From Acidobacteriaceae bacterium (lineage in GTDB: Bacteria; Acidobacteriota; Terriglobia; Terriglobales; Acidobacteriaceae), in NCBI GenBank assembly GCA_003134435.1, contig PLBE01000212.1, positions 1 to 60,127 on the forward strand: 60,127 nucleotides of DNA, read 5' to 3'. How positions within the stretch are numbered: the stretch's first letter is position 1; each line of letters starts with the position of its first letter. The notes beneath the pieces are model-generated. The model saw only the letters and a list, made by a program, of their open reading frames with translations. It was not told the DNA's origin and did no database searches. The translations under genes were made by a program, and so were the position numbers. This document shows positions 4,776 to 26,483 of the stretch, piece after piece.

Positions 4776-7031
4776 CTAGCCTCGAGTGGAGGCGGATTTT
4801 TCTCCCGGGAGGGCCGCATAGACGGCCGCATTCGCGCAGACCTCGTAATACCAGCGATCGGTCCAGCGCAAGATCGAGAGGTCGCGAACATCGACCTGGG
4901 CGATGCGGCTTTTGCGGATGGCAATCTTGCGAAAGTTTCCGTTGGCAATGGGAACTGTGCCCACGAAAAACTCGCAGAGCTCGTCAACCCACGGTCCGGT
5001 AAAGCCGGTTGCGCCCGGGTTTGACTCCCAGGATGTGAGCGAAATTTCCTGCTTTAGCTTGTGGAAGGCTGCTTCACTCAGACAGATCCCGCCGACGTTG
5101 TAGTTGAGCCGCATTTCCTCGGTTCCCACTTCGGCGCTTGCGCTCTCACTGTTGCCGTTGCCACCGCCCCCGATCAGAACCGAGTACACCTGGAATACTC
5201 CCGCGTCCGGAGCGATTTTCTTGCGGACGCGCTTGCTGCAGGATGAAAGCCGGTCGCTGTCATTGATGGCGTCCGAAATCATGATGCGATGCTCGCCATC
5301 CATCAGGTAGAGCGGAGGCGAGTCCTGATAGGCGATGCCCACCCCCACTTCCATCGGAGGCAGTCCGGACTGCTCCAGAAGTTCGTTGTACTCGCGCAGC
5401 AGGCTGACCATTTCCCAGGCCAGCACGCAGGTGCGGCCCACGCTGAGCCGGGCTTCGCCTTCGCGCTCGAGCAGCGCCACAATAATGGCATCGCCTTCGA
5501 GAAAGACCTTGGTGGCGCCGTACTTTGCCAGCAGCTTGTTGACCGGACCGTAGAAATTGAGGCTGAAGTAGGAGGCGGCGTTCATGCCTCTTTCCATCAG
5601 CGACCGCGTGAGACGCGAAGAATCTCGCACGTCGGCCTTAAGAATCACGTGATGAACCACCCGATCCTGGGCGGGCTTCTGGTCTTCGGGCGGCAGAAAC
5701 TCGTAGAGCATGCCGTTCAAACTGGAAAGCTCCCGGACTTTTTCGTCGCTGACCAGATTGATGTGGTCAAAACCGGTGTTGATGGTTTCGAGGCCGCGCA
5801 GATCGCGGTGATACGAGAAAAGGTCGTACAGCACGCGGGCGGCAAAATGGCTGCGTTCCGAGTTGCGGCAGGAGGCCACCCGACCCACCGCGGCAAACAG
5901 GCGGTCGGAGTGAAGGCGGCTTTCGGCGATGATTCTCTCCACTCGTTCCGCTTCTTCGCGGAAGATGAGCGCGTTCTTGATCTGCTGCGGATTCACTCGA
6001 GGCGCATACTCTGCCAGCAGGGGAACCGCCTCATAAGACGCAACCACGTGCGCAAGCACCCCCTGCCGTTGTAACAGACGCGTCCAGATGTCGAGGCGGT
6101 CTTGCTTATTGCGGTCTTCCTGCGTCGCGTCTTCCCCGTTGCCTGTCCCCACCAGTGCGATGGCATTTTCCGGAACATTGAGCGCCTGCTCCAGATGCTC
6201 GTCATCCACTGCTTCGCCGTATCCCAGTTCGCGCAGAAAGCTAAGCGCGCACTGGCGAAGATTGGTGAAACGGTCGGGATCTTTGTCGAAGTTGCCGAAC
6301 ATGTAATAGTGCTCGGCGCAGAGATAGTCGTCCCGGCCCTCATCGGTAAAGACCAGCGGATTGAGAAACAGCTGGTAGCAGTCGGCGGGCGATTCGCCCA
6401 GAAGCGAGTGGCGGGTGCGCGCCAAAGTTTCGGTTTCAATCTGCCGAAGCAGGCGGAACATTTCCTGCCCGGCACGGCGCAAAATGATTTTCTTGCCCAC
6501 TCGGAATGAGGAAACGAGTTCCTGGGTCTGCATCATTTTCAACTGCCGCACACCCTCCAGCGACTTCGCCTTCATGCGGCACTGTTCCAGTATCTTGGCG
6601 TACTGCGTTTGCAGTTCGTTGCGGATGAACTTGAGCACGGCCAGTCGCCCAAGCATATCGATCGACGGATTGCCTTCAGCCTTGGCGCGATTCAGGATCG
6701 CCAGATGAATCGAGGCCAGCACAGTCTTCAGGTCGGCGGGGGTGGCTTTGCGCAGCTTGGCGGGACCCTCGCCGGAGCGAATGAATTTGTTCTGAATCGG
6801 CGCCGGAACGTCCATTTCAAGCAGCGATTCCACTGCTCCGAAACGGCAAATGTAGCGCGCCAGATGGAAGCTCAAATCCGACGTAATGCGCGGACTCAGA
6901 CAGACATCGTAGCGGAGATTGTCGACGCCTAGTTGCAAATCACTGAAGGCGAGCGTCAGGCCGTAGTATTGCAGATCGGGACGACTGGTCGGTTCAGAAG
7001 TGCGCAACCGGAAAATCGGGACCTTGGGCAT
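4776..7031 (-). CDS. Large protein with C-terminal class III nucleotide-cyclase-like domain
   Basis: 751 aa, no signal peptide or membrane segment seen, so cytoplasmic. The N-terminal 450 residues match nothing I recognise and are mostly helical. From about residue 470 the sequence follows the class III cyclase pattern: ILKADVRDSS (first metal Asp), VFLEGDAIIVALLE (second Asp region), VGVGIAYQD, and ISDAINDSDRLSS, which keeps the Asn-x3-Arg pair used in catalysis. Activity is therefore possible, though about 150 residues of unknown sequence follow. No Shine-Dalgarno is obvious before ATG 7031. The gene faces the TonB-like gene (64 bp apart) and lies 169 bp after the redoxin gene on the same strand. 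Confidence 0.8.
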   Translation of the reverse strand: MPKVPIFRLRTSEPTSRPDLQYYGLTLAFSDLQLGVDNLRYDVCLSPRITSDLSFHLARYICRFGAVESLLEMDVPAPIQNKFIRSGEGPAKLRKATPADLKTVLASIHLAILNRAKAEGNPSIDMLGRLAVLKFIRNELQTQYAKILEQCRMKAKSLEGVRQLKMMQTQELVSSFRVGKKIILRRAGQEMFRLLRQIETETLARTRHSLLGESPADCYQLFLNPLVFTDEGRDDYLCAEHYYMFGNFDKDPDRFTNLRQCALSFLRELGYGEAVDDEHLEQALNVPENAIALVGTGNGEDATQEDRNKQDRLDIWTRLLQRQGVLAHVVASYEAVPLLAEYAPRVNPQQIKNALIFREEAERVERIIAESRLHSDRLFAAVGRVASCRNSERSHFAARVLYDLFSYHRDLRGLETINTGFDHINLVSDEKVRELSSLNGMLYEFLPPEDQKPAQDRVVHHVILKADVRDSSRLTRSLMERGMNAASYFSLNFYGPVNKLLAKYGATKVFLEGDAIIVALLEREGEARLSVGRTCVLAWEMVSLLREYNELLEQSGLPPMEVGVGIAYQDSPPLYLMDGEHRIMISDAINDSDRLSSCSKRVRKKIAPDAGVFQVYSVLIGGGGNGNSESASAEVGTEEMRLNYNVGGICLSEAAFHKLKQEISLTSWESNPGATGFTGPWVDELCEFFVGTVPIANGNFRKIAIRKSRIAQVDVRDLSILRWTDRWYYEVCANAAVYAALPGEKSASTRG

Positions 7032-13759: not shown

Positions 13760-16700
13760 ATGGGAGCAGGAGTGAACTTTTCTCTCCACGAATCTGGTTA
13801 CGATACCCTCCGGGATTATCCTCTGACGCGAGGCCCGCACCAGTTCGTCGAAGATCAAGCGGAGCGCACTCCCGATGCCCCCGCTCTGACTATTGCTCAA
13901 CAGCAGATTTGCTACCGCGAGTTGAATTCCCGCGCCAACCGTCTGGCCCATTTCCTCCGCGAACACGCAGTCCGTCCCGAAACCCTGGTCGGCGTCTGTC
14001 TTGATCGATCGGTAGATTCTGTGGTCAGCCTTCTCGCCATCCTTAAATCCGGTGGCGCCTACCTGCCGCTGGATCCAAGATTTCCCAAAGACCGACTTGC
14101 TTTCATGCTTGCGGATTCCGAAGTTTCCCTCCTCCTGACGCATTCTTCGCTTCGCGAAAGGCTGGGCGAAACCAGCGCTCGCGTGATCCAGCTCGACGCA
14201 CCGCTCGACCACGAGGCCGAGACGCTCGTCCGTCTTCCTGCCTCCAACCTCATCCCGACCGGCGATCCTGAACATCTCGCCTACCTCATCTACACTTCGG
14301 GCTCGACGGGAAAGCCCAAGGGAGTCATGATCCCGCGGCGGGCGCTGGTCAATTTCCTCTTGTCCATGGCGGAAGCGCCCGGCATGGCTGCTTCCGATAC
14401 CCATTTGGCGGTTACCACAACTTCCTTTGACATCTCGATCCTCGAATTCCTGCTTCCTCTAATCAGTGGCGCGCAGATCGTCATAGCCACCGCTGAGCAG
14501 GCCGCCGACGGCCGTGAACTGCAGAGATTGCTGCGGCACCACGCCATCACCGTGATGCAGGCGACGCCGACCACCTGGCGCATGCTGCTGGAAAGCGGTT
14601 GGGAAGGGAAGAGCGACCTCCGCATTTTTTGCGGAGGCGAGGCTCTTACTTCCGACCTCGCCCGTCAGTTGCTTCCGCGCTGTCGCGAACTGTGGAATAT
14701 GTACGGGCCCACCGAAACCACGATTTGGTCTTCCACCCAGCGCATTACAATCGCCGACCAGATCTCGCTTGGCCTGCCCGTGGCCAACACCCAATTCCAT
14801 GTCCTGGATGAAAATCTCAAGCCGGTGCCCGACGGAATGCCCGGTGAACTCTGGATTGGCGGCGCCAGCCTGGCTCGCGGCTATCTCAAGCGTCCCGAGC
14901 TCACCGCCGATAGGTTTGTGGTTTGTCCGGATGCTGTCATTACCGATTCTGTCGATTCCAATCAGCAGGTGCAGAGTGCGCGTCTCTATCGCACCGGAGA
15001 CGAGGTTCGCTATCGCTCCGATCACTCGCTTGAATTTCTCGGTCGCCTCGACCATCAGGTAAAACTCCACGGGTTTCGCATTGAACTGGGTGAGATCGAG
15101 AGCGTCCTGGCTAGGATCGACGGAATCACGCAGGCCGTCGTCATCCTTCGAGAAGACGGCCCCGGCGAGAAACGTCTGGTCGCTTATTACACCGGCCCCG
15201 CCGCCTTAAGCTCTACCTCTTTAATTCAGACCCTGCGGGCCACTCTCCCGGTTTATATGGTTCCGGCCGCCTTTGTGCGTCTGGAGAAATTTCCCCTCAC
15301 TCCCAATGCCAAACTCGATCGCCAAGCCCTGCCGCGTCCCGAAGGTAAACGGCCTCTTCTGGCGCAGGACTTTATCGCCCCGCGAACCATGGCGGAAAAG
15401 CAATTGGCCAGTCTCTGGGGTGAACTCCTGCAACTGGAGGAGATTGGCATCGACGACAGTTTCTTCGACCTCGGGGGCAACTCGCTGGCTGCGCTGCGCA
15501 TGGTCAGCCAGTATCAAACTCGCTTCGGACGCGAGATTCCTCCCGTCAAAGTTTTCCAATATCCCACCATCGCCAAGCTTGCGGAATTCCTGGAATCGAG
15601 AGAAGCCAAGTCCGATTTTCTCGCCGATGCCGAGAGCCGGGCGACGCGTCAGCAACGCCGTCGCCAGCACGACTCGCAGGCTGATTCACATGACGGAAAC
15701 GACGGCGTTCGCGATGCCGTTGCCATCGTCGGCATGACCGGACGCTTTCCGGGCGCAGCCAATCTCGATCAGCTCTGGAGCAATCTCTGCCAAGCCGTTG
15801 AATCCATCTCGTTCTTTACGCCTGAAGAACTGGGTCCCGGTATCGACGAAAATCTTCGCCGCGATCCCGACTACATTCGGGCTCGAGGCTTGATCGAGGG
15901 CGCGGATCTCTTCGATGCCGCGTTCTTTGGCATCAACCCCCTCGAAGCCCGCGTCATGGACCCGCAACAGCGCGTCTTTCTCGAACTCGCCTACCACGCG
16001 CTTGAAAACGCAGGCTGCGATCCCGAGCGCTATCCCGGCCGCATTGGTGTGTTTGCCGGCATCGGAGACAATCACTACTACACCACCAACCTTCTCACCC
16101 AGCCCGATCTGCTGGCCATGGCCGGCAAACTCGCCGTCGAATACGGCAACCAGAAGGACTACATAGCGCTTCGTACCGCCTATCTGCTCGATCTCCGCGG
16201 ACCCGCCGTCAGCCTCAATACCGCTTGTTCCACCACCCTCCTGGCGGTCGATCAGGCCTACCGCTCGCTGCTGGACTATGAGTGCGACCTCGCGCTTGCA
16301 GGCGGCATCGACATAACGGTCCCGCAGAAAAGCGGCTTTCTCTACCAAGAGGGAGGCACGTTCGCCAAGGATGGCCATTGCCGCCCGTTCGACGCTGATG
16401 CCACAGGAACGATGTTCTGCGACGGTGCCGGTGTGGTCATCCTCAAGCGTCTAGCCGACGCTCTCGCCGATGGAGACACCATCTATGCCGTGATTCGCGG
16501 CACGGGTAAGAACAATAACGGAGCCCGTCCTGCTTCCTTTCTCGCCCCGAGCGTCGACGGCCAAGCCGATGCCATTGCCCTGGCGCAGTCGAATGCCAAT
16601 GTTCCCATCGAGACCATTCGCTACATCGAAGCGCACGGCACCGGCACTCCAGTCGGCGACCCCATAGAATTTGAAGCGCTCAGGAAAGTCTTTGAGGGCA

Positions 16701-19700
16701 AGACCGCGAAAAAGCAGTTTTGCTATATCGGTTCCATCAAAGGAAATATCGGGCATCCCACCAATGCCGCCGGAGTAGCCGGCCTGATCAAAGCCGCTCT
16801 GGTTCTGCATCAGGAACAAATTCCTCCTACCCTCCACTTCAAACATCCCAATCCTAAAATCGATTTCGACGGCAGCCCTTTCCTGATTGCCGATAAGCTC
16901 ATCCCCTTTCCTCGCGGAGAGCAAGTGCGCCGCGCCGCAGTCAGTTCTTTTGGATTTGGCGGGACCAACGTGCACGTTGTCCTGGAAGAAGCGCCCGATC
17001 CCGATAAGACGCCAGCACGCGCATCGCGACCGTTGCAACTTCTGCCGCTTTCCGCCAAGACCCCCGCTGCGCTCGATGCCTACAGCCATGCCTTGGCGGA
17101 GCATCTTGCCAGTTCGGCTCCGGAGGCTTTCGCGGACGCAGCCTACACCTTCCAAACCGGGCGCAAACAGATGGCCCACCGGCGCTTCGTGGTCGCCGCC
17201 GATTCCACCGAAGCGGCTAAGCTACTCGCGCAGCCAAATCCTTTGCGCTGCGGCAGCAAACGCTGTGAACGCCGCAATCCTCCTATAGTTTTTCTGTTCG
17301 GCGGTCAGGGCACGCAGTACGTCCACATGGGCCTGAACCTCTACCGCGACGAGCCTCTATTCCGCGCCGTGGTCGACGATTGTTGCGAATACCTCCAGCC
17401 CCATCTCGGTCGCGATTTGCGCGAACTTCTCTATCCCCGGAGTGGCGATGAGAAGACCGCCCAGATCGCGCTGCAGGACACTTTCTTTACGCAGCCCTCG
17501 ATTTTCGTCATCGAATATGCGCTGGCGCGTTTGTGGCAGAGCCTGGGTATCGAACCCGCGATCATGGCCGGACACAGCATTGGAGAATTTGTCGCCGCCA
17601 CACTCGCCGGGGTATGGCAGCTTGAGGACGCGCTCAGCATCATCGCTCTTCGCGGCCGCCTGATGCAGGACTTGCCGCGTGGTTCCATGATGGCTGTGAA
17701 CGGCAGCGCGGAGTCGATCACGAAAACTCTTCCCTCTACCCTTCAGCTTGCTTCTAATAACGCTCCCGCTCTCTGCGTAGTGTCAGGCCGGGAAGCGGAT
17801 GTCGTCGAATTCCAGAAGCAACTCGAAGCGCATGACGTCGTCTGCCGCCACCTGCATACTTTCCATGCTTTCCACTCCGCGATGATGGATCCCATGGTCG
17901 AACCGTTGCGCGCGGCTGTCGCTAGAATCCAGTTGCGCGTGCCCACGAAGCCGATTGTCTCGACCGTCACCGGACGTCCGCTCACCGCCGCGGAAGCCAC
18001 CAATCCGGCATATTGGGCGAATCATGCGCGGGCCACGGTTGAGTTTTCGAAAGCAATCCAGTGCATCAAAGACCACGGATACGACCTCTTCCTCGAATGT
18101 GGCCCGCGTTCCACGATGTGTTCGCTGGCTCGCCAGCACTTCGCACCCGAACATCCCTGCGTCGCCGTACCCACATTGGCTGACACGCATGAAAACAACA
18201 CCGAGTGGGCGACTCTGCTCGTTGCCCTCGGAAGTCTCTGGCAGAACGGCGTGTCGATCGATTGGGACGCCTTCTACGCCCACGAACAACGCCGGCGCAT
18301 TCCCCTGCCAACCTATCCCTTTGAGCGGCAACGCTTTTGGGTCGACCCTGCCGCAGTGGCAACTGCTGCACCAGGTCCAGAACGAAGTCCCGAACCATGT
18401 CCTGAGCCACGTCCTGAGCCATGTCCTGAACCCAGCTCTCAACTTTCTGAACCGCGCTTCGAGGCCGCGTCCTCCAAGACCGGCGTCGATTCGCCGGTTG
18501 TTTTGCGGAAAGACCGTATCGCTGCTCGCGTTCTCGACCTGCTCGTACCGGTTTCGGGGCGCGACCGCTCACAAATCAATACCTCCGGCACGTTCATGGA
18601 GCAGGGATTTGATTCTTTGTCCTTGACTCAGGTCGCCTTCGCCATTCGCAAGGAATTTTCGGTCAAAGTCAGCTTCAGTCAACTCATGAATCAGTGGCCC
18701 AACATCGACCTGCTTGCCGCCCATCTGGATGCAACTCTTCCGGTCAACATTCTCGCGGAAACTCACCCTGTCCCGGCTCCTCTGCCTGCTCCTCGACTTC
18801 CCGCTGCATCTTATGCGGCGGGCACAAGGCCGGATGTACGAGCAACGAACAGCGTGCTCGAAGAGGTTATTGCCGAGCAAGCGCGCACGATTACTCGTTT
18901 GGTGACGCTTCTCGAAAACGCCGGCAAAAATCATCCCACGGAAGCTGCCTCGACCAATGGCAACCATCTCGACAGGGCAGCCATCGTCGCTCCACCGAAA
19001 ACTGCTCCGCTGCCTGCCGGCCCGCCTGAAGTCGAATCTACCGTCCCGCAGCGCGGTATCTACGCTTCGTCGCGTCTTTCCGAACATTTGTCGGCTTCCT
19101 ACAACGAGTCTATGACCGTGCGCTTCACCGGCAATATCTCGATCGAAAAAATGACACAAGCCATGCAGCGCGTCGTCGATCGTCATGATGCGCTTCGCGC
19201 CAGCTTCGACGAAGCCGGTCAGGTGATGAAAATCGCGCCCGCCCAGAAGATCACGGTGCCCGTCACCGACCTTTCCGCGCACGGCCAAACGTTGCTTCAG
19301 GAGGATCGTCTCCGAAAAATAATTGGCGATGAGACCGCCTTTCCATTTCCCCTGCCCGCGGGCCCGCTGTTCCGCTGCCAGATGATCTTGCTCGACCCTG
19401 ACCGCGCCGCGGTCATCTTCACCGCCCACCACATCATCTGCGACGGTTGGTCGTTGGATGTTCTGATCCACGATCTCTGCGCTTTTTATGCGGAAGAAGT
19501 TTCGGGCGCGCCTGCATCGCTGCCGCCCGCGCAGTTCTATGCCAGCTACGTGCAGGCAGTAACCGAGCGTCATCGTTCCGACGAATTCAAGGAAGCTGCC
19601 AGCTATTGGCATGAGAAGTTCAACCATGGTTTTCCCGTGCTCGCGCTGCCCACCGACCACCCTCGAAGCGCGCGCCGCGAATTCAACGCGCGCCGTGCCG

Positions 19701-21625
19701 ATCACACCATTCCAGCCCCGGTAGTCGAAAGCCTCAGAGCGGCAGCGGCCAAGCAGGGGTGCAGTTTTTTTACCGTCGTGCTTGCTTCCCTGGCGATCCT
19801 TCTCGCTCGCATCTCACGGCAGCGCCGTTTTGTGATCGCTCTGCCCATCGCGGAACAGCCCGTAATCGGCCAGCCCGGGCTCGTCGGACACTGCGTGAAC
19901 CTGCTGCCCTTCCTGGTGGATTTGCGGCCCGGCGAAATCACCGGCGCTTTTCTCCAGAGAGTGCAGGGCGAGCTGCTGGCGGCTCAGGACCATGCCATTT
20001 TCACCATGGTCAGCTTGCTGGAAGACCTCCACGCCGCCGCGCCAGCGCTAGGCATTTCTCCGATTTCGGTCGGCCTTACCAACGTCAAGAAATTCAAGCC
20101 GAACGAACTGCCGCAGTCCGGATTCACCGTCGATTACGATGCCAACCCCAAAGCTTTCGAATCTTTCGAGCTCTATTTGAATGCGGTCGAGATGGAAGAC
20201 AGGCTGGACCTGCGCTGTCACTATGACACCAGGCTTTTTGCCGACCTGACCATTCGAGGATGGCTGACAACGCTGGAAACTATTTTTGAACGCTTGGCGG
20301 CAGATCCCTCGCGGGAAGTTCTTGATCTTGCCCGGCTCACCCGCGCCAACGCCTCCCTTGCAACTGAACTTGTCTACACGCAGAGCTCACACTGCGAAGC
20401 GCCTTGCGAATGTTCTTCCGCAGTTTCGACTTCGGCGGCAGAACCGCGCCCGCACTCGTCAGACTCGGCGGTGGCTTCTGCGAGATTCACGACGACGTCG
20501 GAACCCGCCTTGCTCCAGGCCCTGCTCCCGCTCTGGCAACGCGTAATGGACATCCGTGCGATCGGGCCGGACGATGATTTCTTCGCTTTGGGCGGACATT
20601 CCATCGCCGCGGCGCAGTTGTTCAGCCTTATCCAGCGTGAGTTGGGATGCAGCGCGCCGCTCGCCATTCTCTACGAAGCCTCCACCCCGCGCCTGCTGGC
20701 CACTGCCTTGTGCCGGGATAGCCAGGAAAAAGAAAAAGATTGGAAGTCCCTGGTGCTGATCAATCGTGGCGGAGATCGCCCGCCACTTTTTCTTGCGCAC
20801 GCCGCCGAAGGCAACGTCCTGCTCTACCGGTCGCTCGCGGCCCGTCTCGGAGCAGATCAGCCCGTCTTCGGCTTGCAGTCCGCCGGTCTCGATGGCCGAT
20901 CTCCCATCGATGGCAAGTTTGAAAATGTGGCTCGCCGCTACCTCGAAGAGATCCGCCAGGTACAACCGCATGGCCCCTACATGCTTGGCGGTTACTGCCT
21001 GGGTGGAACGTTGGCCCTGGAAATGGCGCGGCAACTGATCGCCTCGGGCGAAACTGTGGGACTCGTTGCCTTGATTGAGATTTACAATATCCGTTCGCTC
21101 CGGTGGCCGCTCCCCTGGCACCAGAGATTTGCCAATCGCTTTATGCTCAACCCCTACTTCCACCTGCGGAACGTTATGGCGGCGGAGGGTGAGGGCAAAC
21201 GCGCCTTCTTCATGGAAAAACTGCGGGTGGAGATTTCCAGAGCCAAGGCATCAGCCAGCCTCGGTTGGGCGTGGATTCGTCATCATTTCCTGCCGGAGAC
21301 CGGCGCACCTACGCCTCGAGCCAAGATTGCGGATATTTACGAAGAGGCCCTGGCTCAATACGATGTCCGGCCCTATCCGGGCGAACTGACTCTTTTCCTG
21401 GCGGAACGCCATCTGGCGGGATTTCACGATCGTCTCGGTGGCTGGGGTGAAGTGGCGCAAGGCGGCGTGCGGCTCTTTTCTCTGCCCATTAGCCCTCGCG
21501 GCAGCCTGGTAGAGCCCTATGTCGCGCAACTCGGCGCCCTTCTGCGCGCCTGCCTTGACCAGGCAATCAAAGGTTCGAAGATGGCAGTGGATCATTCGGC
21601 TCGGGATCTGGTCGGCACGCACTAG
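13760..21625 (+). CDS. Hybrid peptide/polyketide megasynthase (A-T-KS-AT-T-C-T-TE)
   Basis: 2621 aa from ATG 13760 (AAGGG five bases before; TTG 13742 is the longest option). Order by eye: adenylation about 25-530 (YTSGSTGKPKGVM); T 541-613 (GGNSLAAL); KS 651-1078 with NTACST, EAHGTGT and KGNIGH; AT 1175-1463 (GHSIG, HAFHS, the malonyl-CoA type); Pro/Glu linker with 12-bp DNA repeats; T 1583-1663 (FDSLSLTQ); condensation 1763-2183 (HHIICDG); T 2250-2320 (GGHSIAAA); thioesterase 2332-2603. It should load an amino acid, extend it once with malonate without beta-keto reduction, and then condense. The A-domain pocket reads roughly DILQICMIWK, nearest to glycine-type codes I recall; tentative. No A domain follows C. 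The TE has GYCLGG (Cys for Ser) and SPR where GDH is expected. No tailoring, MbtH, transport or phosphopantetheinyl transferase gene is adjacent. Confidence 0.95.
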   Translation: MGAGVNFSLHESGYDTLRDYPLTRGPHQFVEDQAERTPDAPALTIAQQQICYRELNSRANRLAHFLREHAVRPETLVGVCLDRSVDSVVSLLAILKSGGAYLPLDPRFPKDRLAFMLADSEVSLLLTHSSLRERLGETSARVIQLDAPLDHEAETLVRLPASNLIPTGDPEHLAYLIYTSGSTGKPKGVMIPRRALVNFLLSMAEAPGMAASDTHLAVTTTSFDISILEFLLPLISGAQIVIATAEQAADGRELQRLLRHHAITVMQATPTTWRMLLESGWEGKSDLRIFCGGEALTSDLARQLLPRCRELWNMYGPTETTIWSSTQRITIADQISLGLPVANTQFHVLDENLKPVPDGMPGELWIGGASLARGYLKRPELTADRFVVCPDAVITDSVDSNQQVQSARLYRTGDEVRYRSDHSLEFLGRLDHQVKLHGFRIELGEIESVLARIDGITQAVVILREDGPGEKRLVAYYTGPAALSSTSLIQTLRATLPVYMVPAAFVRLEKFPLTPNAKLDRQALPRPEGKRPLLAQDFIAPRTMAEKQLASLWGELLQLEEIGIDDSFFDLGGNSLAALRMVSQYQTRFGREIPPVKVFQYPTIAKLAEFLESREAKSDFLADAESRATRQQRRRQHDSQADSHDGNDGVRDAVAIVGMTGRFPGAANLDQLWSNLCQAVESISFFTPEELGPGIDENLRRDPDYIRARGLIEGADLFDAAFFGINPLEARVMDPQQRVFLELAYHALENAGCDPERYPGRIGVFAGIGDNHYYTTNLLTQPDLLAMAGKLAVEYGNQKDYIALRTAYLLDLRGPAVSLNTACSTTLLAVDQAYRSLLDYECDLALAGGIDITVPQKSGFLYQEGGTFAKDGHCRPFDADATGTMFCDGAGVVILKRLADALADGDTIYAVIRGTGKNNNGARPASFLAPSVDGQADAIALAQSNANVPIETIRYIEAHGTGTPVGDPIEFEALRKVFEGKTAKKQFCYIGSIKGNIGHPTNAAGVAGLIKAALVLHQEQIPPTLHFKHPNPKIDFDGSPFLIADKLIPFPRGEQVRRAAVSSFGFGGTNVHVVLEEAPDPDKTPARASRPLQLLPLSAKTPAALDAYSHALAEHLASSAPEAFADAAYTFQTGRKQMAHRRFVVAADSTEAAKLLAQPNPLRCGSKRCERRNPPIVFLFGGQGTQYVHMGLNLYRDEPLFRAVVDDCCEYLQPHLGRDLRELLYPRSGDEKTAQIALQDTFFTQPSIFVIEYALARLWQSLGIEPAIMAGHSIGEFVAATLAGVWQLEDALSIIALRGRLMQDLPRGSMMAVNGSAESITKTLPSTLQLASNNAPALCVVSGREADVVEFQKQLEAHDVVCRHLHTFHAFHSAMMDPMVEPLRAAVARIQLRVPTKPIVSTVTGRPLTAAEATNPAYWANHARATVEFSKAIQCIKDHGYDLFLECGPRSTMCSLARQHFAPEHPCVAVPTLADTHENNTEWATLLVALGSLWQNGVSIDWDAFYAHEQRRRIPLPTYPFERQRFWVDPAAVATAAPGPERSPEPCPEPRPEPCPEPSSQLSEPRFEAASSKTGVDSPVVLRKDRIAARVLDLLVPVSGRDRSQINTSGTFMEQGFDSLSLTQVAFAIRKEFSVKVSFSQLMNQWPNIDLLAAHLDATLPVNILAETHPVPAPLPAPRLPAASYAAGTRPDVRATNSVLEEVIAEQARTITRLVTLLENAGKNHPTEAASTNGNHLDRAAIVAPPKTAPLPAGPPEVESTVPQRGIYASSRLSEHLSASYNESMTVRFTGNISIEKMTQAMQRVVDRHDALRASFDEAGQVMKIAPAQKITVPVTDLSAHGQTLLQEDRLRKIIGDETAFPFPLPAGPLFRCQMILLDPDRAAVIFTAHHIICDGWSLDVLIHDLCAFYAEEVSGAPASLPPAQFYASYVQAVTERHRSDEFKEAASYWHEKFNHGFPVLALPTDHPRSARREFNARRADHTIPAPVVESLRAAAAKQGCSFFTVVLASLAILLARISRQRRFVIALPIAEQPVIGQPGLVGHCVNLLPFLVDLRPGEITGAFLQRVQGELLAAQDHAIFTMVSLLEDLHAAAPALGISPISVGLTNVKKFKPNELPQSGFTVDYDANPKAFESFELYLNAVEMEDRLDLRCHYDTRLFADLTIRGWLTTLETIFERLAADPSREVLDLARLTRANASLATELVYTQSSHCEAPCECSSAVSTSAAEPRPHSSDSAVASARFTTTSEPALLQALLPLWQRVMDIRAIGPDDDFFALGGHSIAAAQLFSLIQRELGCSAPLAILYEASTPRLLATALCRDSQEKEKDWKSLVLINRGGDRPPLFLAHAAEGNVLLYRSLAARLGADQPVFGLQSAGLDGRSPIDGKFENVARRYLEEIRQVQPHGPYMLGGYCLGGTLALEMARQLIASGETVGLVALIEIYNIRSLRWPLPWHQRFANRFMLNPYFHLRNVMAAEGEGKRAFFMEKLRVEISRAKASASLGWAWIRHHFLPETGAPTPRAKIADIYEEALAQYDVRPYPGELTLFLAERHLAGFHDRLGGWGEVAQGGVRLFSLPISPRGSLVEPYVAQLGALLRACLDQAIKGSKMAVDHSARDLVGTH
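18396..18431 (+). repeat. Three 12-bp direct repeats in the AT-T linker
   Basis: Three adjacent 12-bp units, CATGTCCTGAGC, CACGTCCTGAGC and CATGTCCTGAAC, encode part of a Pro-Glu-rich linker (PEPCPEPRPEPCPEP). Two further bases differ between units at most. It looks like slippage expansion in a flexible interdomain linker. Confidence 0.8.
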
Positions 21626-24725: not shown

Positions 24726-26483
24726 ATGTCTAGTCAGTGCACCACCGCGTTCTTGCCGAAGACCGTCATGACGATGTGCGCGGTAGTTATTTGTGCGAGC
24801 ATGGCTTTTGCCGGCTCGCCCGTGATTTCCTCCAGCATGCCCCCGAAGATGTCCACCGACCTGGCCGGTAAACACTCCTCCGCCATGGTCGACGTTATCG
24901 TCCAGTTCACGCAGATTCCTACTGCCCGTCACCATCAAAAAGTGTTGAGCCGCGGCGGGACTCTCAAACAAGAACTGGGCGTGGTGAAGGCTGGAGCGTA
25001 CTCGATACCGGCATCGGCGCTGGCCGATCTCGCCGCCGATCCCGAGGTCGTTTATATCTCGCCCGATCGGCATCTGGCGGGTTTTCTTAATAATGGAGCA
25101 CCCGCGGTCAATGCCCCCTACGCCTGGGCGAAGGGATTGGACGGCAGCAACATGGCCGTAGCGGTCATCGATAGCGGTATTCAGGACAACACTGCCGCAG
25201 CCAGCTTGCTGGGGGCGGCGTCGGCCACGAAACTCGAGAACCTGCTCGGCGAAATCGTCGGAAACCCCGACCTGGATCAACTGAACTCAAGAACTTCGCG
25301 GGTGGTTTACAGTCAGTCCTGGGTAAACGATGGAAACGGTGCGATGGACGTCTACGGCCATGGCACGAACGTGGCCGGCATCGTTGCCGGGAACGGCTCC
25401 AAATCAACGGGAGCAAAGTTTATCAAGACGTTCAAGGGCATCGCTCCCAACGTCAACCTGATCAATCTTCGCGTTCTCGACGGCACGGGCATGGGAACCG
25501 ATAGTTCGGTGATTGCCGCAATCGAGACCGCTGTGAAATTGAAGAGCACCTATAACATTCGAGTCATCAACCTGTCTCTGGGCCGGCCGGTATTCGAGAG
25601 TTACACGCTCGACCCGCTTTGTCAGGCGGTAGAAGCGGCCTACCAGGCTGGCATCGTAGTTGTGGCCGCGGCAGGCAATGATGGCCGGGATAACTCCGAG
25701 GGAACGACCGGATATGCCACCATCGACTCTCCCGCGAATGACCCCTATGTCATTACCGTGGGCGCCATGAAGTCCATGGGAACTCCCACTCGCGCCGACG
25801 ATTTGATTGCCACCTATAGCTCCAAGGGGCCGACTTCAATTGACCACATCGTGAAGCCGGATATCGTCGCTCCCGGCAATCAACAGGTCGCGCTCTACGG
25901 CTGGGTAGCCAGCTTGGCGGGCAGTTATCCTGGGAATAAAGTGCCGCTCAGCAGCTATGTGAGTGGCGCTACTTCAGGAAACTCCCCCTATTACTACATG
26001 ATGAGTGGCACCAGCATGGCCGCTCCCGTAGTTAGCGGCGCGGTGGCCTTGCTCCTCCAGTCACAGCCCACACTAACGCCCGATCAGGTAAAAGCGAGGC
26101 TGATGCTGACGGCCTACAAAACCTTTCCGTCCTACAGCAGTTATACCGATCCAACTACGAGTATCACCTACACGAGCCAGTACGACATATTCACCATTGG
26201 AGCGGGGTACCTCGACATTCAGGCTGCTCTGAACAGTACCGCGGTCGCTACCGGGGTGGCGAAATCGCCGACCGCCGCGTACGACCCGACAACTAACAGC
26301 GTGTACTTCGTCAACGACTCTTCCGCCATGTGGGGCAGTTCCGCGATGTGGGGTAGCTCCGCCATGTGGGGGAGCAGCACCTCGCAGGGCTTCAGCGCGA
26401 TGTGGGGCTCAAGCGCGATGTGGGGAGCCAGCACCTCCAACACCACCGAATCGATCGGTATCCTGATCAACGGGGAAAACTAA
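24726..26483 (+). CDS. Exported S8 (subtilisin-like) serine peptidase with SAMWGS repeats
   Basis: 585 aa. A signal sequence (VMTMCAVVICASMAFA) is followed by an inhibitor_I9-like propeptide region (VDVIVQFTQ, VVYISPDRHLAG). The peptidase domain keeps the full catalytic set: Asp in AVIDSGIQ, His in YGHGTNVAGI, oxyanion Asn in AAAGNDG, and Ser in SGTSMAAPV. A short unfamiliar C-terminal part (532-585) contains five SAMWGS-type hexapeptides and ends NGEN. I have the impression that such tails occur in acidobacterial subtilases, but could not check. Start ATG 24726 is the longest; Met15 is also possible. Promoter elements and a strong terminator suggest a one-gene unit. Confidence 0.95.
   Translation: MSSQCTTAFLPKTVMTMCAVVICASMAFAGSPVISSSMPPKMSTDLAGKHSSAMVDVIVQFTQIPTARHHQKVLSRGGTLKQELGVVKAGAYSIPASALADLAADPEVVYISPDRHLAGFLNNGAPAVNAPYAWAKGLDGSNMAVAVIDSGIQDNTAAASLLGAASATKLENLLGEIVGNPDLDQLNSRTSRVVYSQSWVNDGNGAMDVYGHGTNVAGIVAGNGSKSTGAKFIKTFKGIAPNVNLINLRVLDGTGMGTDSSVIAAIETAVKLKSTYNIRVINLSLGRPVFESYTLDPLCQAVEAAYQAGIVVVAAAGNDGRDNSEGTTGYATIDSPANDPYVITVGAMKSMGTPTRADDLIATYSSKGPTSIDHIVKPDIVAPGNQQVALYGWVASLAGSYPGNKVPLSSYVSGATSGNSPYYYMMSGTSMAAPVVSGAVALLLQSQPTLTPDQVKARLMLTAYKTFPSYSSYTDPTTSITYTSQYDIFTIGAGYLDIQAALNSTAVATGVAKSPTAAYDPTTNSVYFVNDSSAMWGSSAMWGSSAMWGSSTSQGFSAMWGSSAMWGASTSNTTESIGILINGEN
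26319..26432 (+). repeat. 18-bp tandem repeats encoding SAMWGS
   Basis: Three adjacent 18-bp units (SSAMWG), an 18-bp interruption (TSQGFS), then two more units encode the Trp-rich tail. Units differ mostly at third codon positions, e.g. GCC/GCG and AGT/AGC, so the peptide rather than the DNA appears conserved. Confidence 0.9.

What the first reader, a model, noticed from the sequence alone, without database searches (positions are those of the whole stretch)
13760..21625. Solitary hybrid megasynthase with order A-T-KS-AT-T-C-T-TE and no second A domain
Seen: one gene encodes an amino-acid loading module, one malonyl extension module without KR, DH or ER, a condensation domain, a carrier and a release domain. 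The carrier after C has no adenylation domain, so its amine substrate must be loaded in trans, by the first A domain, or C must act on a free amine. Known: C domains normally precede an A-T pair. Inferred: a small beta-keto amide or tetramate-like product from one enzyme without tailoring genes.
Basis: partly seen in the sequence, partly recalled or inferred. Interest (0 to 1): 0.85.

Follow-up and report, generated by a model that had tools for sequence, protein, structure and literature searches.

The report
One-enzyme glycine–malonate–glycine hybrid synthase
An acidobacterium carries one large enzyme that probably joins glycine, a two-carbon unit and a second glycine while using a single amino-acid-activating domain for both glycines; versions of it occur in eight related genomes, but its product is unknown.

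Summary
Window 13760-21625 (+) is one intact gene for A-T-KS-AT-T-C-T-TE, with one A domain and no KR, DH or ER found. It is no assembly accident: the order recurs in four same-genus genomes, in G421 and palsa_360, in SbA1 (TE replaced by a GNAT-like domain) and in G402 (A end lost at a contig edge). dN/dS against this copy is about 0.13.

The lone A has a glycine-type code in 8 of 8 members that show it. In relatives, loading A domains before KS are glycine-type in 0 of 29 (same frame) and 0 of 19 readable (separate frame), acceptor A domains behind the PKS module in 11 of 14 (same frame) and 12 of 42 (separate frame). So the front A resembles an acceptor-module A. Simplest reading: one glycine A charges both T1 and T3, as HMWP2 does for yersiniabactin, giving Gly-malonyl-Gly. 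Loading, release and product are inferred.

The TE is odd: cysteine nucleophile, no histidine at the column where 63 of 79 compared TEs have one. New variant of a known kind.

The parts
13760..21625 (+). Whole gene, A-T-KS-AT-T-C-T-TE megasynthase (open frame from TTG 13742; ATG 13760 aligned in 5 of 5 same-genus copies)
13850..15331 (+). A domain, code D-I-L-Q-F-G-M-I-W (glycine type)
   Evidence: DILQLGMIWK given for Gly in PMC12283262
15401..15592 (+). T1 carrier, Ser581 (codon at 15482)
15713..16840 (+). KS, Cys829, His965, His1005
17288..18205 (+). AT, Ser1279, HAFH motif (malonyl type, recalled)
18509..18736 (+). T2 carrier (approximate ends), Ser1625 (codon at 18614)
19040..20332 (+). 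C domain, HHxxxDG intact, of the kind that follows PKS modules
20513..20716 (+). T3 carrier without an A domain (approximate ends), Ser2287 (codon at 20600)
20774..21541 (+). TE: Cys2419 nucleophile (GYCLGG), Glu2446 at the usual Asp column, Pro2585 at the usual His column

Best explanation
A self-contained synthase. A phosphopantetheinyl transferase encoded elsewhere in the genome arms three carriers (inferred). The single A domain activates glycine and charges both T1 and the A-less T3 (inferred; the key step). AT loads malonate for T2; KS condenses it with glycine from T1 to 4-amino-3-oxobutanoyl-T2, left unreduced because no KR, DH or ER was found. C then joins this acyl chain to glycine on T3, giving H-Gly-malonyl-Gly on T3. 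The unusual TE takes the chain on its cysteine and releases it, either by hydrolysis (C6H10N2O4, [M+H]+ 175.071) or by Dieckmann closure to 3-(aminoacetyl)tetramic acid (C6H8N2O3, [M+H]+ 157.061); both masses were worked out by hand. Shown by sequence: domain order, intact active sites, glycine-type code, kinship of A, KS and C, selection. Inferred: double loading, direction of flow, release chemistry, product. In history it looks like a longer A-T-KS-AT-T-C-A-T line whose internal A is gone and whose front A is now of the glycine (acceptor) kind.
For: Order and active sites. Glycine-type code in the lone A of 7 of 7 relatives that show it and of this copy; DILQLGMIWK is given for glycine in PMC12283262 (passages), and three of the eight have its first nine letters exactly. 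In relatives, loading A domains before KS are glycine-type in 0 of 29 in the same frame and 0 of 19 readable of 25 in a separate frame; acceptor A domains behind C after a PKS module in 11 of 14 in the same frame and 12 of 42 in a separate frame. Fisher for 11 of 14 against 0 of 29 is 6e-8 (relatives are not independent). A tree (80 of 175 rows): family A one clade (99) beside glycine A domains of C-A-T modules, not among the loading A domains (those two joins 87 and 90, under the 95 mark). C tree (65 of 142 rows): 9 of 9 family C in one clade (100), on the side of C domains behind PKS or aminotransferase modules, away from all 15 C-T-TE domains. KS sister to an A-T-KS-AT-T-C-A-T protein whose second A is glycine-type (98). 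Own genome: one other A domain over the amino-acid cut-off, also glycine-type. T3 dN/dS 0.10-0.16. Precedent: HMWP2's A loads PCP1 and PCP2 in cis and PCP3 in trans (PMC9547227, passages). A two-domain transferase of the PF01648 superfamily is in the genome.
Against: No biochemical data. Glycine is not the rule for acceptor A domains in separate frames (12 of 42; the largest group is DAFWLGGTF, 9), and the C domains nearest the family include several of those, so kinship of C does not fix the acceptor. The C-A-T-TE on contig C1 could serve T3. Related genomes hold separate A or A-T proteins over the cut-off: stand-alone A in SbA1, bog_443 and bog_209, A-T of 642-664 residues in palsa_296, bog_207 and bog_209, one of them glycine-type; so trans loading is not excluded there. 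G402's A is unseen. A 4-amino-3-oxoacyl thioester could cyclise off T2 by itself (chemistry recalled), leaving C-T-TE idle. The release domain differs among members, so one common product is not assured. One C domain behind a PKS carrier (L105) falls on the other side of the C tree. The His column rests on a sequence alignment; the TE model is moderate (mean pLDDT 65).
Confidence: 0.55

Rival explanations
1. T3 is charged in trans by another A domain, as SyrB1 supplies the A-less C-T-TE end of SyrE.
For: SyrE/SyrB1 precedent (PMC8949500, passages). This genome has one other A domain over the amino-acid cut-off, in a C-A-T-TE, glycine-type; in bog_207 and bog_443 a C-A-T-TE lies on the same contig as the megasynthase. 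Separate A or A-T proteins over the cut-off occur in palsa_296, bog_207, bog_443, bog_209 and SbA1.
Against: Candidates differ from genome to genome. This genome (completeness 100) shows no separate A or A-T over the cut-off, G421 shows only the megasynthase and a 1485-residue protein, and G402 (91% complete) shows none at all. The C1 A already sits in its own C-A-T-TE.
Confidence: 0.25
2. T3 carries no amino acid; C uses a free amine, or T3 only hands the chain to the release domain.
For: T3 has no A of its own. The release domain is exchangeable: in SbA1 it is GNAT-like (below Pfam's cut-off), which could pass a chain to an amine. A-less C-T-TE ends recur in other phyla.
Against: The family C groups with C domains of C-A-T modules, not with the 15 C-T-TE domains; T3 Ser and HHxxxDG are kept in 9 of 9.
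Confidence: 0.15
3. A decaying or non-functional remnant of a longer assembly line.
For: It lacks domains that relatives have (aminotransferase, internal A), it is solitary here, and neighbours differ among genomes.
Against: Open frames in all nine members, one cut by a contig end; dN/dS 0.13-0.22 over ten pairs and 0.03-0.16 per domain against this copy; active sites kept.
Confidence: 0.05

Closest known systems
Yersiniabactin synthetase HMWP2/HMWP1
   Same: One A domain loads several carriers, in cis and in trans; [quoted passage not shown]
   Different: There the A lies in another protein than the A-less PKS-NRPS end, loads cysteine, and the condensing domains are Cy; here A and the A-less module are on one chain with a PKS module between, and the A is glycine-type.
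Syringomycin SyrE end C-T-TE with SyrB1 A-T
   Same: Terminal C-T-TE without A (PMC8949500, passages).
   Different: SyrE is fed by a separate protein; no separate A common to all holders was found here.
Fungal PKS-NRPS tetramate synthetases (equisetin, tenellin)
   Same: Dieckmann release to a tetramic acid is the proposed analogy (R* domains: PMC8949500, passages; the rest recalled).
   Different: Those end in R*; this ends in a TE, starts from an amino acid and lacks the internal A.
A-T-KS-AT-T-C-A-T protein of a Deltaproteobacteria MAG (L094)
   Same: Same order without aminotransferase; its KS is sister to the family KS (98); second A glycine-type.
   Different: Has the second A, no TE on the protein; its front A has another code, DVWHISLIW.
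KS-AT-T-AMT-C-A-T lines followed by C(-C)-T-TE (e.g. L040 in the same genus; Methylocapsa L121, Methylocella L138)
   Same: C of the same broad group; A behind it glycine-type in these three.
   Different: They carry an aminotransferase domain and a complete C-A-T.

Membership tests
NRPS-PKS hybrid megasynthases | A, T, KS, AT, C domains on one chain with intact active sites | tested here: met
Yersiniabactin-like lines with one A for several carriers | A-less carrier after a condensing domain | tested here: met
Yersiniabactin-like lines with one A for several carriers | The A charges the distant carrier | not testable with these tools
   needs a loading assay
Yersiniabactin-like lines with one A for several carriers | Cy domain and cysteine-activating A | tested here: not met
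   C with HHxxxDG; glycine-type code
SyrE/SyrB1-type trans-loaded ends | Separate A-T partner present in the holders | tested here: inconclusive
   No separate A or A-T over the cut-off in this genome, G421 or G402; candidates in five others; several genomes are incomplete
PKS-NRPS tetramate synthetases | Unreduced beta-keto acyl donor plus amino acid acceptor | tested here: inconclusive
   no KR, DH or ER found; acceptor inferred
PKS-NRPS tetramate synthetases | Dieckmann-competent release domain | not testable with these tools
   TE of unusual type; needs an assay
Canonical Ser-Asp-His thioesterase domain | Ser nucleophile, Asp and His at the usual columns | tested here: not met
   Cys, Glu and Pro at those columns, though the fold is of the thioesterase kind

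The most novel reading that the evidence does not exclude
A single glycine A domain charges two carriers on either side of a PKS module within one polypeptide, and a cysteine TE that lacks the usual histidine closes Gly-malonyl-Gly to a small tetramic acid; the TE belongs to a class in which loss of the histidine goes with Ser-to-Cys replacement and which uses a different release chemistry.
Probability: 0.2. Interest if true: 0.7.

Novelty: new variant of a known kind. Interest (0 to 1): 0.47.

Why it matters
If right, it is a very short complete line that breaks the one-A-per-module rule within one chain, with a predicted product of only six carbons, and it makes sharing of an A domain across a PKS module directly testable on one protein. 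The histidine-less cysteine TE would open a question about release chemistry. It also gives a defined enzyme family to peat-bog and other Acidobacteria; I saw no product assigned to it.

Tried and rejected
Considered and rejected: a hidden second A domain (Pfam AMP-binding and NCBIfam TIGR01733 give one stretch each); a frame artefact (all nine members open, one cut by a contig end); a pseudogene; an aminotransferase domain hidden in the T2-C linker (about 100 residues, variable; the aminotransferase reference matches no family member); a C of the C-T-TE kind.

Counting those in a separate frame behind a PKS or aminotransferase protein gives 12 of 42, which weakens the claim that the C acceptor is glycine by kinship.

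Led nowhere: the fold of the SbA1 C-terminal domain (mean pLDDT 38; no PDB match by sequence up to E 1); the epimerase neighbour, found in 7 of 8 genus genomes searched, with or without the megasynthase; paper searches for the domain string (none), dual loading (one listed, not read), a histidine-less TE (ten listed, none read), Sulfotelmatobacter (one listed, not read). Of (seven listed) I saw passages of PMC6668435; (four) passages of PMC8949500; (13) passages of PMC9547227 and PMC10127202; (12 of 22 listed) passages of PMC9723581; (one) passages of PMC12283262. No paper was read whole. Trees are quick ones with SH-aLRT only; the C tree warns of long branches meeting at L094. The family and order samples (398 and 397 genomes) overlap. 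L164 was left out of counts and trees as the same protein as L079; G402 (L163) has no A to count; six of 25 separate loading frames had no readable code.

Full report
What is there. One gene at window 13760-21625 (+) encodes A-T-KS-AT-T-C-T-TE. NCBIfam gives one amino-acid adenylation stretch, 58-467. Catalytic residues of KS, AT, C and the three carriers are kept in 9 of 9 members. Upstream is a SpoIIE/HAMP protein, downstream an HD/GGDEF protein on the other strand, so the gene stands alone here.

Is it real and kept? A search with the C-T-TE part found it in 5 of 24 genus genomes, this one included; a profile of five copies matched 8 of 398 family genomes at 1e-130, 7 of 397 order genomes, all already in the family set, and 1 of 396 phylum genomes at 1e-110, this one. 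Nine genomes in all: this one, four same-genus, palsa_360, SbA1, G421 and G402. Eight show A-T-KS-AT-T-C-T; G402 starts at T1 because its contig ends there. Seven of the nine have a TE of one class: six in one clade (100), palsa_360's of that class but unresolved. G402 has a different TE, and SbA1 a roughly 390-residue GNAT-like tail, below Pfam's cut-off. Pairwise dN/dS among five same-genus copies is 0.13-0.22; against this copy every domain lies at 0.03-0.16 and the linkers at 0.14-0.48.

What does A activate? The nine readable code positions are DILQFGMIW here and DILQFGMIW (4) or DILQLGMIW (3) in 7 of 7 relatives that show them. PMC12283262 states that four glycine-activating domains share DILQLGMIWK (passages); glycine for the F variant is inference. 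The tenth position, Lys, is recalled.

Where does the lone A come from? Among relatives and this genus, loading A domains before KS are glycine-type in 0 of 29 in the same frame and 0 of 19 readable of 25 in a separate frame. Acceptor A domains behind C after a PKS module are glycine-type in 11 of 14 in the same frame but only 12 of 42 in a separate frame, where DAFWLGGTF is commonest (9). So a glycine A in loading position is unusual, while in acceptor position it is common, not universal. The A tree sets the family beside acceptor-type glycine A domains (87 and 90, moderate). The C tree sets 9 of 9 family C in one clade on the side of C domains behind PKS or aminotransferase modules, and the KS tree sets the family next to L094, an A-T-KS-AT-T-C-A-T protein (98). 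L095, an A-T-KS-AT-T-AMT-C-A-T-TE protein, has a TE of the same odd class. The picture is a longer line in which the internal A was lost and the front A is now a glycine A.

How does T3 get its amino acid? Self-loading by the front A is the simplest. The only other A over the amino-acid cut-off in this genome is in a C-A-T-TE on contig C1, also glycine-type, so with either of the two glycine is expected. Precedent for one A serving several carriers is HMWP2 (PMC9547227, passages); for trans service of a C-T-TE end, SyrB1 (PMC8949500, passages). Separate A or A-T proteins over the cut-off are present in five of the eight genomes searched and absent in this one, G421 and G402, so there is no common trans partner, but in those five trans loading stays possible.

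Release. The TE model has the thioesterase fold by Foldseek (Pks13 TE, 7dxo and EntF among the first 50; mean pLDDT 65). In 79 aligned TE domains the nucleophile is Ser in 55 and Cys in 24; the usual His column holds His in 63, Pro in 12, Gln in 3, Thr in 1; all 16 without His have Cys, against 8 of 63 with His (Fisher 3e-11, relatives not independent). Another residue could replace the His in space; I could not test this. A cysteine TE makes the beta-lactone in ObiF, but there with His and Asp (PMC6668435, passages). So the family TE may not be a simple hydrolase; hydrolysis and Dieckmann closure both stay open.

Surroundings elsewhere. In bog_443 the gene lies between a phosphopantetheinyl transferase and a UDP-GlcNAc 2-epimerase; in bog_207 a FemAB/GNAT-like gene, the epimerase and the transferase follow it on the same strand. 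In SbA1 neighbours are LuxE, LuxC and a methyltransferase; in G421 sugar genes; near palsa_360's copy a phage-type integrase. I saw no neighbour shared by all, so no tailoring step is implied. The epimerase is in 7 of 8 genomes searched, with or without the megasynthase, so it is no evidence of linkage.

Novelty. The concept (A sharing, A-less end) is known. This arrangement on one chain was not found in the held library by string search, which is weak evidence. I file it as a new variant of a known kind.

Noticed in passing
window 20774-21541 and 78 other TE domains from fetched loci: TE domains without the usual His have Cys instead of Ser (16 of 16, against 8 of 63 with His); 12 of them share a motif P..P(R/A/K/G)G(S/M/I)..EP.
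   Followed up: partly
L164:5892-7061 (-), SbA1: TE replaced by a roughly 390-residue GNAT-like domain (below Pfam's cut-off); stand-alone homologues of 384-397 residues in 3 of 60 other genomes searched.
   Followed up: partly
L040:6292-18548 (-); also L041, L042: Same genus: KS-AT-T-AMT-C-A-T followed by C-C-T-TE, an unassigned hybrid line, split over several frames in L041 and L042.
   Followed up: partly
L108, L121, L138, L130, L080, L081: KS-AT-T-AMT-C-A-T followed by an A-less C-T-TE protein in Beijerinckia, Methylocapsa, Methylocella, a Rhodobacteraceae MAG and two Acidobacteria: A-less ends recur in this kind of line.
   Followed up: no
L043 (own genome contig C1) 2045-17977: Second NRPS locus: class IV aminotransferase, C-A-T-TE, T-TE, aldehyde dehydrogenase, glycosyltransferase and phosphopantetheinyl transferase.
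   Followed up: partly
window 24726-26483 (+): Subtilase whose C-terminal end repeats SSAMWG several times.
   Followed up: no
window 4776-7031 (-): 751-residue open frame with no Pfam match at 0.001.
   Followed up: no
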